Below are positions 5,141 to 9,378 of a stretch of 33,304 bases of DNA, in pieces (positions within the stretch are counted from its first letter, which is position 1; every line of letters begins with the position of its first letter). Below the pieces are notes generated by a model, which was not told the DNA's origin, did no database searches, and was given only the letters and a program-made list of their open reading frames with translations. A program made the translations under genes and the position numbers. This stretch comes from Chloroflexota bacterium (lineage in GTDB: Bacteria; Chloroflexota; UBA6077; JAJPHF01), in the NCBI GenBank assembly GCA_019686175.1, contig JADGHJ010000012.1:1-33304 (forward strand), written 5' to 3'.

Positions 5141-5851
5141 ATGAATGCGCTGCGTGCTTATGAGCAGCGCCTGCGCGACGCGCTGGGGCTGGCAGGGCGG
5201 CCGGTCGGCGTGGCCTTCCTGGAGCGGCCGCCGGCTGAGATTCCGCCCTTCGCCGGCAGCGCCCCGGCGGGCTGCCACTTCTGGCGGCTCGCCGCCGAGG
5301 GACGCACGTTCTACACCGTTCCTGCAGACCATCACCACTGCCCCATCGGGAGCTACACCCACAACGTACCGCTACCCGAGGCGCGCGCCGCCGAGCTGCA
5401 GCGGACGCTCGACTGGATGGCCGACCTCGGCTACCTGCGCCCGGAGGAGGTACCCACGCTCCCGCGGCTGGCGCGGCCCCCGGGCGCTATCGTCTATGCG
5501 CCGCTCGGCGCGATGCCGGTCCCGCCGGACGCCGTCCTGCTGGCGAGCCGGCCGGGCCGCCTGATGCTGCTCCAGGAGGCCGCCTTGCACGCCGGCCTGG
5601 GCGCCGCCTTCCCGTTGCTGGCGCGCCCCACCTGCATGGCGCTGCCGGCCGCGCTCGACCGCGGCCTCGTGCTCAGCGCGGGCTGCATCGGCAACCGCAT
5701 CTACACCGATCTCGGCGACGACGAGCTGTACGTGGTGCTACCCGGGCGCGACCTGCCACGGGTCGTGGAAGCGCTGGACACGGTGGTCGCGGCGAACGCG
5801 GCGCTCGCCGACTACCATCGCGCCCGCCGTCAACAGCTCAGCGCCGAGTAG
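5141..5851 (+). CDS. DUF169 domain-containing protein
   Basis: MNALRAYEQRLRDALGLAGRPVGVAFLE...GCHFWRLAAEGRTFYTVPADHHHCPIGSYTHNVPLP; DUF169/COG2043-like Cys-containing pattern. The track ORF starts at 5081; ATG at 5141 is the more likely start. Confidence 0.8.
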   Translation: MNALRAYEQRLRDALGLAGRPVGVAFLERPPAEIPPFAGSAPAGCHFWRLAAEGRTFYTVPADHHHCPIGSYTHNVPLPEARAAELQRTLDWMADLGYLRPEEVPTLPRLARPPGAIVYAPLGAMPVPPDAVLLASRPGRLMLLQEAALHAGLGAAFPLLARPTCMALPAALDRGLVLSAGCIGNRIYTDLGDDELYVVLPGRDLPRVVEALDTVVAANAALADYHRARRQQLSAE

Positions 5852-5955: not shown

Positions 5956-6609
5956 ATGGCGAACGAGGGCAACGCGCCGGGGACCGGTCCGCTGGTGACG
6001 TTCACGGATGTCGCCCGGCAGAAGCTGATCGAGGTGCTGGACGAGAAGCAGCTCCGGGGCCAGGCGGCGGTGCGCCTCGCCGTCCAGGGCCGGGGGCCCA
6101 ACGGCCTGGAGTACGCCATGGCGCTGGAGCCCGAGGGCCAGCCCGATCCGACTGATACCGTGGTGGACGTCGGCGACTTCCAGGTGTTCGTCGACGCCGA
6201 GTCAGCCCCGCAGATCCAGGGTGCCACGGTGGATTATGTCGAGGATCTGATGGGCGGCGGCTTCCAGATCCACAACCCCAATCCGTTGTGGAGCGACCCA
6301 CTCGCCCAGGGCATCCAGGAGTTGATCGACACGCGCATCAACCCCAGCGTGCGCATGCACGGCGGCCACGTCACGCTGATCGACGTGAAGGACAACCTCG
6401 TGTATGTGCGCCTGGGCGGCGGCTGCCAGGGGTGCGGCATGGTGGACGTCACCCTCCGGCAGGGGATCGAGGCCCTGATCAAGCAGCAGTTCCCGCAGAT
6501 CGAGGCCGTCGTCGACACCACGGACCATCGCGGCGGCACCAACCCCTACTACCAGCCCGCCAAGGGTGCCGCCGGGCAGAGCCCGTTCTACGCTCCATCC
6601 AAGGGATAG
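5956..6609 (+). CDS. nfuA: NfuA-type Fe-S cluster carrier (degenerate A-type N-domain plus NifU C-terminal domain)
   Basis: 217 aa; NPSVRMHGGHVTLIDVKDNLVYVRLGGGCQGCGMVDVTLRQGIEALI with the CxxC of the Nfu domain; N-terminal HesB/IscA-like region lacks the A-type cysteines. Confidence 0.85.
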   Translation: MANEGNAPGTGPLVTFTDVARQKLIEVLDEKQLRGQAAVRLAVQGRGPNGLEYAMALEPEGQPDPTDTVVDVGDFQVFVDAESAPQIQGATVDYVEDLMGGGFQIHNPNPLWSDPLAQGIQELIDTRINPSVRMHGGHVTLIDVKDNLVYVRLGGGCQGCGMVDVTLRQGIEALIKQQFPQIEAVVDTTDHRGGTNPYYQPAKGAAGQSPFYAPSKG

Positions 6610-6615
6610 GCGCGC

Positions 6616-7917
6616 TCAGCGAGGCTGTCCCACCACCGGTAGCGCGAGCCGCGCGGGGCCCGCGGCCAGACATTCCGCCGCGGCAGGGGGCGCATCGGCA
6701 GGGCCAATCAGGAAGCCGAGTCGGGCGTGCGCCTCGCGTAGCGCGGCCTCCACCGCCTCGGGCGTGTCGCCGCGGGCGAACAGGAAGCCGAGGTAACGGT
6801 CGCCCTCGGGCAAAGGCACCACCGGCTGGCCGAGCGGGATCGTGATCTCCAGCCCCTCGATGCCCGGCACCCGCCGCGCGGTCTCCTCGCCTTGCACGCC
6901 GTACAGGACGCCCGCCCGCGGAATGGGCAGCATCATCACCCCGGCCGCCGCGCGCTCGCGGACCAGCAGCCCCGTGAGGTCCAGGCCCACGGCATGGCGC
7001 AGGATCAACTCTTCCAGACTGATACCGGCGCCGAAGCGGAGCGTCCGGGAGCAGAGGCCGCCGATCGAGCGCGCGGCGATCTCCAGCACGTACGGCCCGC
7101 CCGGCCCGACGCGCAACTCGGCGTGCAGCGGCCCCTCGCGTAGCCCCAGCGCCGCGGCCGCGCGCGCCACCCTGTCCGCCACCGCGGCTTGCAGGACAGG
7201 CGGGTGGCGCGAGGGCGTGATGTACAGTGTCTCCTCGAAGTACGGCCCGTCGAGCGGGTCCGGCTTGTCGAACACCGCCAGCACGTGCAGCTGGCCGGCC
7301 ACCAGCAGCCCCTCCAGCGCGACCTCCGGTCCCGGCAGGAACGACTCCACCAGAATGTGCCGCTGGTTGGCGTCGTCGGCGGCGAGCAGCGCCGCGATGC
7401 GCTGGAACGCCGCCACGAACTCGGCGGGCGTGTCGGCGCGGATCACGCCGCGGCTGGCGGCCAGGGCGGTGGGCTTGAGCACGCAGGGGTACGGCGCGAC
7501 GGCCGCCGCCCGCGCCGGATCGGCGTCCACCGTCCAGCGCTGGAAGGCCGGGCCGGGCAGGCCCGCGTGGGCCAGAACTCGCCGCAGGCGGTACTTGTCT
7601 CGGGTGGCGCGCACGGCGTCCGGGGCGTTGTGTGGCAAGCCCAGCGCCGCCGCGGCCAGCGCGGCCAGCACCGCCGTGTCGTCGTCCACGCCGATGACCG
7701 CGTCGAGCGGTACGTCGCGGGCGAAGCGCACGATGCGGCGCACCGCGCGGTCGGGCCGCCGGAAATCGAGCGCGAGGGTGGTATTGCGAACGTGGCCGGC
7801 CAAGGCTTGGCGCCGCTCCGAGCCGACCACCACCTCGACGCCCAGGCGGCGCGCCGCAGTGAGGAACGGCCGCGCACGATAGGTGCGCGTGCTCATGAGC
7901 AAGAGGACACGCGGCAT
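6616..7917 (-). CDS. ATP-grasp domain protein, L-amino acid ligase (LAL)-like
   Basis: 433 aa; PCVLKPTALAASRGVIRADTPAEF and HILVESFLPGPEVALEGLLVAGQLHVLAVFDKPDPLDGPYFEETLYITPS (ATP-grasp), C-terminal GVMMLPIPRAGVLYGVQGEE...LGFLFARGDTPEAVEAALREAHARL resembling LAL C-terminal domain 2. ATG at 7917 abuts the TAG at 7920-7918 of the upstream gene. Confidence 0.82.
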   Translation of the reverse strand: MPRVLLLMSTRTYRARPFLTAARRLGVEVVVGSERRQALAGHVRNTTLALDFRRPDRAVRRIVRFARDVPLDAVIGVDDDTAVLAALAAAALGLPHNAPDAVRATRDKYRLRRVLAHAGLPGPAFQRWTVDADPARAAAVAPYPCVLKPTALAASRGVIRADTPAEFVAAFQRIAALLAADDANQRHILVESFLPGPEVALEGLLVAGQLHVLAVFDKPDPLDGPYFEETLYITPSRHPPVLQAAVADRVARAAAALGLREGPLHAELRVGPGGPYVLEIAARSIGGLCSRTLRFGAGISLEELILRHAVGLDLTGLLVRERAAAGVMMLPIPRAGVLYGVQGEETARRVPGIEGLEITIPLGQPVVPLPEGDRYLGFLFARGDTPEAVEAALREAHARLGFLIGPADAPPAAAECLAAGPARLALPVVGQPR

Positions 7918-9378
7918 CTACACTCCCGCCTCGGTGATGGTCAGCGGACCGAACTGGTCCGCGGTGGGCTCCGCTCAGCAGAACCAGGGCTCGGTGAGCC
8001 GTGGCACCGCCGGCGTGGCGGCCAGTCGGTCGCGATCAAGCGGCGGCACGGGGCGGGCCGCGGTGGCATGCGCCAGCGCGCGCAGCCGGGCGAACGTCTC
8101 CACCGCCGGCTCGCCGTCGCGCGCCGCCTCCTCCACCAGCGCAGCAGCTGCGGTTGCTAGGGCGTCCATGCGTGGATCGGGATGGTGCCAGCGGTAGGCG
8201 AACGCCTCCGGATCGAACGCCCCCAGGTGCGGCGCCAGCGCGGCCGTGCCGAGCAAGCTGGAGCCGCGCGGTACCAGCAGCCGGATGGCGAGCTGGACGG
8301 GGTCGACGTGGCGCACCAGCGCGTGCCGCTCGATGAAGGCCAGCAGCTCCAGGTAGTCGTCGAGCGTGGTCCAGGGCGTGAACGGGACGAAGGTCGGCCG
8401 CAGTGGGACGCCCACGGCGCGCGTCAGCCCCAGCGCGATCACCACATCCTGCGCGGTGTGGCCCTTCTGCAACGGCGCCAGGATGTGGTCGTGGACCGCC
8501 TCCACTGCCGAGACGATGAACAGGCAGCCCGCGGCCCTGAGGGCCGGCAGGTGCTGGCGGTGCTCCAGCAGGTGCTCGATCTTGATCGTGGCGTCGAAAG
8601 TGAGGTGCGGCCACGCCGCGTGCAGCTCGGCGACGAGTCGCAGCGAGTGGCGGATGCCGTTGAAGAAGTCCGGATCCCCGAAGGTGATGTGCTCGGCACC
8701 CAGCGCCACAAGCTGCGCGATGTCGGCCAGCACGACCTCCGGGTCCACGATGCGCAGCCGCCCGCCGTAGACGGGGGTGAGCGGGCAGTGGAGGCAGCGG
8801 TGGGCGCAGCCCCGGCTGGCCTCGACGTAGCCTACCCGCCGCTGACCGTCCGGGGTCTCCACGTGCGCGTAGCGGTCGAGCTCCGGCAGCCCGTCGCGTG
8901 CCGGCAGGCGCCAGTGCTGGCGCCCCAGGTACACGCCGCCGTCCGCCTCACGCAGCCGCACGCCCGGGACAGGCGCCTGGGACGCTGGCCCGCCGCACGC
9001 GTTGGCCCGACCCGCTGCGATCCGGTCGGCGAGCGCCACCAGGGGCGTCTCGTACTCGCCCCCGATCACGCTGTCGGCCCAGCGCCCGAGCACCACGTCG
9101 CCGTGCAGCGCCGCGTACAGCCCGTAGAAGCAGATGTGCGCGTCGGGATTGAGCGCGCGCACGCGCTCGGCCAGCCGCACCCCCAACCGCATCGCCGTGT
9201 GCATGGGGGTCGAGATGCCGACGAGCCGCGCCGCGCGCACTGCCGTGGGGTCCAACCGCTCGACCGCCAGATCCTGGCAGCGGACGGCGTGGCCGGCCGC
9301 ACGCAGGTGCGCCGCGGGGCTGGCCAGGGCGAGCGGCTGGTGCCCCAGCTCGTAGGTCGACAGCAGGAGGACATTCAT
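7918..9378 (-). CDS. B12-binding radical SAM protein, predicted CUAEP-tail selenoprotein (TGA at 7977-7975 read as selenocysteine)
   Basis: ATG at 9378 (MNVLLLSTYELGHQPLALASPAAHLRAAGHAV...), B12-binding-like N-domain, radical SAM CxxxCxxC (ASRGCAHRCLHCPLTPVYGG). In frame after the TGA: ...RLTEPWFC-U-AEPTADQFGPLTITEAGV-TAG (7920-7918). 486 residues including Sec; the track version stops at 7975. Confidence 0.85.
7944..7962 (-). promoter_or_regulatory. Putative bacterial SECIS hairpin
   Basis: RNA sense: UGA-gcggagcccacc-GCGGACC-aguuc-GGUCCGC. Perfect 7-bp stem, 5-nt loop with G at loop position 2; the loop begins 20 nt downstream of the UGA. Confidence 0.68.

What the first reader, a model, noticed from the sequence alone, without database searches (positions are those of the whole stretch)
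7918..9378. Hidden selenoprotein: in-frame TGA inside a CUAEP-tail radical SAM protein
The radical SAM ORF is cut by the ORF caller at TGA 7977-7975 right after ...RLTEPWFC. Continuing in frame gives U-AEPTADQFGPLTITEAGV then TAG, so the tail reads C-U-A-E-P. Established knowledge: a family of radical SAM proteins is named for exactly this CUAEP (Sec) or CCAEP (Cys) C-terminal tail. Seen directly: the tail sequence, the frame, and a TAG at 7918-7920 immediately abutting the next gene's ATG (7917-7915). Standard annotation would truncate this protein by 19 residues and lose its vicinal Cys-Sec pair.
Basis: partly seen in the sequence, partly recalled or inferred. Interest (0 to 1): 0.92.

Follow-up and report, generated by a model that had tools for sequence, protein, structure and literature searches.

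The report
Selenocysteine-tailed radical SAM enzyme
A gene that looks as if it ends at a stop codon is in fact read through to insert selenocysteine, giving a radical SAM enzyme of an already named family; neither its reaction nor that of the small gene cluster it travels with is known.

Summary
Confirmed. On the minus strand (9378 to 7918) a radical SAM gene carries an in-frame TGA (7977-7975) and continues U-AEPTADQFGPLTITEAGV to TAG. It scores 660 bits against NCBIfam NF040546, 'CUAEP/CCAEP-tail radical SAM (seleno)protein' (cut-off 500), so the family is already named. All 79 homologs with a readable tail have Cys or TGA at this codon, followed by AEP (39 TGA, 40 Cys). The host genome has tRNA-Sec (UCA), SelA, SelB and a SelD with its own in-frame TGA. 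SelB is found in 35 of 40 genomes of TGA-tailed homologs and 14 of 40 Cys-tailed ones. New here: a SECIS-type hairpin at a fixed place after the TGA, with compensatory changes in TGA genes and lost in most Cys genes; at least 5-9 Sec/Cys switches; relic hairpins in Cys-tailed Thermogemmatispora; and a conserved neighbourhood (ATP-grasp amino-acid ligase, NfuA-like Fe-S carrier, four-Cys DUF169). The sister family is ArsL (arsinothricin synthesis, also ending in vicinal Cys), but this is not ArsL and no ArsL-cluster arsenic genes lie beside it. Sec insertion is nearly certain by inference; the reaction is unknown. My best guess is ArsL-like chemistry followed by amino-acid ligation.

The parts
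7918..9378 (-). CUAEP-tail radical SAM selenoprotein, 486 aa, stop TAG 7918-7920 included
   Evidence: NF040546 659.8 bits, cut-off 500; AlphaFold model mean pLDDT 94.3
7975..7977 (-). In-frame TGA read as selenocysteine (Sec468)
   Evidence: Cys or TGA in 79/79 homologs with a readable tail; TGA is an ordinary stop elsewhere in the window
7944..7962 (-). SECIS-type hairpin GCGGACC-AGTTC-GGTCCGC; loop 7951-7955, loop G 21 nt after the A of TGA
   Evidence: MFE structure; 89% of cells paired and 42 cells changed on both sides versus 15.6 in shuffles for TGA genes, 41% paired for Cys genes
7921..7980 (-). C-terminal tail: vicinal Cys467-Sec468 pair, then Ala-Glu-Pro and 15 further residues
   Evidence: C467, C/U468, A469, E470, P471 invariant in 63-row alignment A1
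8785..8808 (-). Radical SAM CX3CX2C motif, Cys191, Cys195, Cys198 ([4Fe-4S] ligands)
   Evidence: present in 80/80; Pfam PF04055 42.5 bits
6616..7917 (-). ATP-grasp amino-acid ligase (ATP-grasp_4, LAL_C2), starts directly at the TAG of the selenoprotein gene
   Evidence: Pfam; a homolog lies beside the gene in 50 of 81 loci
5956..6609 (+). NfuA-like protein (HesB/IscA domain plus NifU domain), convergent
   Evidence: Pfam PF01521 and PF01106; homolog nearby in 30 of 81 loci
5141..5851 (+). DUF169 protein with four invariant Cys (45, 67, 165, 182)
   Evidence: PF02596; homolog nearby in 22 of 81 loci; invariant Cys

Best explanation
This is a genuine bacterial selenoprotein of the NF040546 family. 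Its UGA at 7977-7975 is decoded as selenocysteine by SelB and tRNA-Sec, directed by the hairpin just downstream, and translation ends at TAG 7920-7918 (this part 0.95). The enzyme has a cobalamin-domain-like N-terminal fold without a DxHxxG motif, a radical SAM core, and a C-terminal vicinal Cys-Sec pair. By inference (about 0.35) it works like its sister ArsL: it cleaves SAM and transfers a fragment, probably 3-amino-3-carboxypropyl, to a substrate that the Cys-Sec pair holds or reduces. The amino-acid product is then joined to another amino acid by the adjacent ATP-grasp ligase. The NfuA-like and DUF169 proteins serve the Fe-S cluster or the electron or metal supply.
For: Family score 659.8 bits. 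Cys/TGA-AEP tail in 79/79 readable homologs from many phyla. Host tRNA-Sec with UCA anticodon and encoded CCA, SelA 574 bits, SelB 356 bits, SelD 385 bits with its own TGA in GAG-U-ACK. SelB over cut-off in 35/40 TGA-tailed and 14/40 Cys-tailed genomes, Fisher p 2.3e-6. Hairpin covariation in TGA genes only. For the mechanism: full-length homology to ArsL (Alicyclobacillus ArsL scores 364 bits on the CUAEP model) and vicinal Cys at both C-termini; ATP-grasp ligases beside both; fold like AprD4, TsrM and OxsB.
Against: No direct proof of selenium in the protein. Five TGA-tailed genomes lack a SelB match over cut-off, perhaps because they are incomplete MAGs. The window hairpin alone is no more stable than shuffled sequence (z -0.59); the case rests on the comparison between genomes. 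For the mechanism: none of the ArsM, ArsN1, ArsR, ArsI or transporter proteins of the ArsL clusters is found beside the CUAEP genes except one MFS match, and the ATP-grasp ligases of the two families are only about 25% identical, so the shared association may be convergent.
Confidence: 0.9

Rival explanations
1. TGA is a true stop; the protein ends at ...EPWFC and the downstream AEP reading is untranslated or a pseudogene remnant.
For: Standard gene calling gives this, and the public T. roseum record is truncated in the same way.
Against: AEP is conserved after the codon in 79/79 homologs and the hairpin covaries; an untranslated stretch would not keep codon-phase conservation.
Confidence: 0.02
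2. The TGA is a sequencing error for TGC/TGT, or the organism reads TGA as another amino acid throughout.
For: None beyond possibility.
Against: 39 other genomes in many phyla have the same TGA, and so do same-order relatives. TGA ends many other genes here, including the peptidase gene just upstream.
Confidence: 0.01
3. It is an ArsL orthologue that makes hydroxyarsinothricin from As(III).
For: Sister family, 312 bits to NF040542; vicinal Cys at both C-termini; ATP-grasp ligase beside both.
Against: Below the ArsL cut-off of 450; no RCCLKC tail; no arsM or arsN1 beside 80 CUAEP loci.
Confidence: 0.06
4. The Cys-Sec pair is not a substrate or redox site but ligates an auxiliary Fe-S cluster or metal, which the NfuA-like protein supplies.
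For: NfuA-like gene beside 30 of 81 loci and YggX-type Fe-trafficking protein beside 13; Cys285 (76/80) and Cys83 (73/80) could add ligands.
Against: Only the two tail residues and the radical SAM triad are invariant Cys/Sec positions; Sec as an Fe-S ligand would be unusual.
Confidence: 0.25
5. It is a cobalamin-dependent radical SAM methyltransferase.
For: Fold matches TsrM and OxsB, both cobalamin enzymes; weak Pfam B12-binding match of 30.9 bits.
Against: Below Pfam's cut-off of 32.1; no DxHxxG in any of 80 sequences; the best structural match is AprD4, a diol dehydratase.
Confidence: 0.12

Closest known systems
NF040546 rSAM_CUAEP (CUAEP/CCAEP-tail radical SAM (seleno)protein, NCBIfam)
   Same: Full-length match over the curated cut-off, radical SAM triad, Cys-Sec-Ala-Glu-Pro tail
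   Different: Nothing that would set it apart; it is a Sec-form member
ArsL, NF040542 (arsinothricin biosynthesis radical SAM protein, RCCLKC tail)
   Same: Same domain order and shared motifs along the whole core; both end in vicinal Cys; ATP-grasp ligase near both
   Different: Tail sequence differs, about 60 extra residues before the tail here, Sec in place of Cys, no arsenic genes nearby
AprD4 (PDB 6fd2) and TsrM (PDB 6wte)
   Same: Fold: cobalamin-domain-like N-terminal part plus radical SAM core
   Different: About 20% identity over the aligned parts; a CU tail was not looked for in them
TrsS (NF045646) and rSAM_SeCys (TIGR04167), other radical SAM selenoproteins
   Same: Radical SAM selenoproteins listed in the 2026 review PMC13188914
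   Different: Neither model matched this protein; NF040546 was not found in that review

Membership tests
NF040546 CUAEP/CCAEP-tail radical SAM (seleno)protein | Score over the curated cut-off of 500 bits | tested here: met
   659.8 bits over profile 1-467 of 468
NF040546 CUAEP/CCAEP-tail radical SAM (seleno)protein | C-[C/U]-A-E-P tail | tested here: met
   Cys467-TGA468-Ala-Glu-Pro
NF040546 CUAEP/CCAEP-tail radical SAM (seleno)protein | Radical SAM CX3CX2C motif | tested here: met
   C191-X3-C195-X2-C198; motif in 80/80
Bacterial selenoprotein | In-frame TGA aligned with Cys in homologs | tested here: met
   40 of 79 readable homologs have Cys, 39 TGA
Bacterial selenoprotein | SECIS hairpin just downstream of the TGA | tested here: met
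   7-bp stem with AGTTC loop and covariation across TGA genes; the dedicated bSECISearch program was not available
Bacterial selenoprotein | selA, selB, selC, selD in the host genome | tested here: met
Bacterial selenoprotein | Selenium in the mature protein | not testable with these tools
   needs 75Se labelling or mass spectrometry
ArsL (NF040542) | Score over the curated cut-off of 450 bits | tested here: not met
   312.4 bits
ArsL (NF040542) | RCCLKC tail | tested here: not met
   alignment with two RCCLKC proteins
ArsL (NF040542) | Arsenic genes (arsM, arsN1) in the neighbourhood | tested here: not met
   no tblastn match in 80 loci or in the window stretch around the gene
Cobalamin-dependent radical SAM enzyme | B12-binding domain over cut-off and DxHxxG motif | tested here: not met
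   30.9 versus 32.1 bits; motif in 0 of 80; cobalamin binding without DxHxxG, as in TsrM, is not excluded

The most novel reading that the evidence does not exclude
The CUAEP enzyme, ATP-grasp ligase, NfuA-like protein and DUF169 form a widespread, undescribed pathway in which a selenocysteine at the C-terminus of a radical SAM enzyme takes part in ArsL-like 3-amino-3-carboxypropyl chemistry, making an unusual amino acid that is then joined to another amino acid.
Probability: 0.25. Interest if true: 0.75.

Novelty: new member of a known kind. Interest (0 to 1): 0.42.

Why it matters
Radical SAM enzymes that use selenocysteine are few, and none of this family appears to have a published function (nothing found in the paper library). 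The comparison gives a testable SECIS element, natural Sec/Cys pairs for activity comparisons, and a conserved gene set that points to one pathway in Chloroflexota, Nitrospirota, Rokubacteria, Poribacteria and others. It also shows that annotation still cuts some of these proteins short.

Tried and rejected
Pseudogene, sequencing error and alternative genetic code were rejected (see rivals). ArsL membership was tested and failed. Arsenic neighbours were sought with eleven proteins of two ArsL clusters; only the ATP-grasp ligase, plus one MFS match, was found. A Pfam scan of 77 other neighbours gave no further strongly recurrent family. The DUF169 model (pLDDT 94.1) had no significant match among solved structures (best E 0.1). 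Rfam found nothing in the window. Folding energy of the window hairpin alone was not significant. The key papers by Haft and colleagues on new selenoprotein families are not held, so a published account of this family there cannot be excluded.

Full report
Observation. On the minus strand of the window a reading frame opens with ATG at 9378 and runs through CX3CX2C (Cys191, 195, 198) to ...RLTEPWFC, where it meets TGA 7977-7975. In frame it continues U-AEPTADQFGPLTITEAGV and stops at TAG 7920-7918, which abuts the ATG of the next gene.

Family. The full-length protein scores 659.8 bits against NCBIfam NF040546, CUAEP/CCAEP-tail radical SAM (seleno)protein, curated cut-off 500; the next family is ArsL, NF040542, 312.4 bits against a cut-off of 450. 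So the kind of protein is already named by NCBI's curators. A search of the paper library for CUAEP found nothing, and NF040546 was not found in a 2026 review of prokaryotic selenoproteins, PMC13188914. The two papers most likely to treat it are not held.

Conservation across the TGA. One scan of one-genome-per-species contigs gave 80 homologs. One (L082) has a TGA at the codon but then unreadable bases; the other 79 have C-[C/U]-A-E-P, 39 with TGA and 40 with a Cys codon. In an alignment of 63, Cys467, the Cys/Sec468 position, A469, E470 and P471 are invariant. Relatives in the same order and class as the host also carry TGA.

Host machinery. The host assembly (4.36 Mb, 97.5% complete, 5.1% contamination) holds tRNA-Sec (73 bits, ARAGORN anticodon tca, CCA encoded), SelB 355.7 bits, SelA 574.5 bits, and SelD 385.3 bits with one in-frame TGA of its own in ...GAG-U-ACK.... 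The stretches around these genes have the same G+C as that around the CUAEP gene, 71-73%. Among genomes of homologs, SelB over cut-off was found in 35 of 40 with the TGA tail and 14 of 40 with the Cys tail, Fisher p 2.3e-6.

SECIS. After the TGA, at a fixed place, lies GCGGACC-AGTTC-GGTCCGC, a 7-bp stem with the loop G 21 nt after the A of TGA, inside the range known for bacterial SECIS elements (general knowledge). Folding of this one sequence is not unusual for its base content (z -0.59). The comparison is decisive: counted from the loop, TGA genes have on average 6.05 contiguous pairs and Cys genes 2.45 (40 and 40 rows, the window included among the former; p 7e-11). On a gap-free alignment of 32 TGA genes 89% of cells pair, against 71% in shuffles and 55% or less when the partner is slid; 42 cells have both sides changed, against 15.6 in shuffles. 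In 40 Cys genes 41% pair, no better than shuffled. Relatedness inflates such counts, but the slid controls share it. Four of the five Cys-tailed Thermogemmatispora keep 4-8 pairs (L056 eight, with TGT), and all five genomes keep SelB, which reads as a recent Sec-to-Cys change with a relic hairpin. On a tree built without the tail the label changes at least 9 times, at least 5 on well supported branches (quick method).

Neighbourhood. Homologs of the window's ATP-grasp gene lie beside 50 of 81 loci, of the NfuA-like gene beside 30, of DUF169 beside 22; the peptidase, glycosidase and Rid-like genes of this window are local, and the citrate synthase gene recurs once. In 40 of 52 counted cases the ATP-grasp gene is downstream on the same strand. 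The ligase belongs with L-amino-acid ligases (ATP-grasp_4, LAL_C2). The NfuA-like protein has the HesB and NifU domains. DUF169 of this set has four invariant Cys and a confident model without solved relatives. A YggX-type Fe-trafficking gene lies near 13 loci.

Mechanism. AlphaFold gives a confident model (mean pLDDT 94.3, the tail blocks 73-81) whose best solved matches are AprD4, TsrM and OxsB. That is a cobalamin-domain-like N-terminal part with a radical SAM core; the DxHxxG motif is absent in 80 of 80. Alignment with two RCCLKC-tail (ArsL) proteins shows shared motifs along the whole core and vicinal Cys at the end of both, with about 60 extra residues before the tail here. [quoted passage not shown] ArsL clusters of Alicyclobacillus and Priestia also hold an ATP-grasp gene, but none of their arsenic genes is found at CUAEP loci. 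I therefore take ArsL-like SAM cleavage, with a soft, thiol-binding acceptor or a redox role for Cys-Sec, and later ligation to an amino acid, as the most likely scheme, at about one in three. Shown: the sequences, the conservation, the hairpin, the Sec machinery and the neighbours. Inferred: Sec insertion itself, the reaction and the pathway.

Verdict. The value lies in the SECIS evidence, the Sec/Cys switches and the conserved gene set.

Noticed in passing
L018 (G000:C70:376-1296, minus): The host's SelD is itself a selenoprotein gene, with one in-frame TGA in ...SHGAG-U-ACKLSP...
   Followed up: partly
window 5141-5851: DUF169 protein with four invariant Cys and one invariant His; the confident model has no significant match among solved structures.
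   Followed up: partly
L056:5375-5414 (and L024, L025, L039): Cys-tailed Thermogemmatispora genes keep a relic SECIS-like hairpin after TGT/TGC in genomes that still have SelB: probably a recent Sec-to-Cys change.
   Followed up: partly
L102:2436-3668 and L103:2483-3706: ArsL-type clusters on Alicyclobacillus and Priestia plasmids carry an ATP-grasp ligase gene and an AhpD-like gene, suggesting that arsinothricin may be further joined to an amino acid there.
   Followed up: partly
L101:8935-10371: The annotated T. roseum CUAEP protein ends before the Sec codon; the DNA continues WFC-TGA-AEP.
   Followed up: yes
window 7895-7945, minus: The selenoprotein's TAG abuts the ligase's ATG and a GGGAG lies within the tail codons, so ligase translation may depend on Sec read-through; similar tight spacing was seen only in L021 and L022 among TGA-tailed loci.
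   Followed up: no
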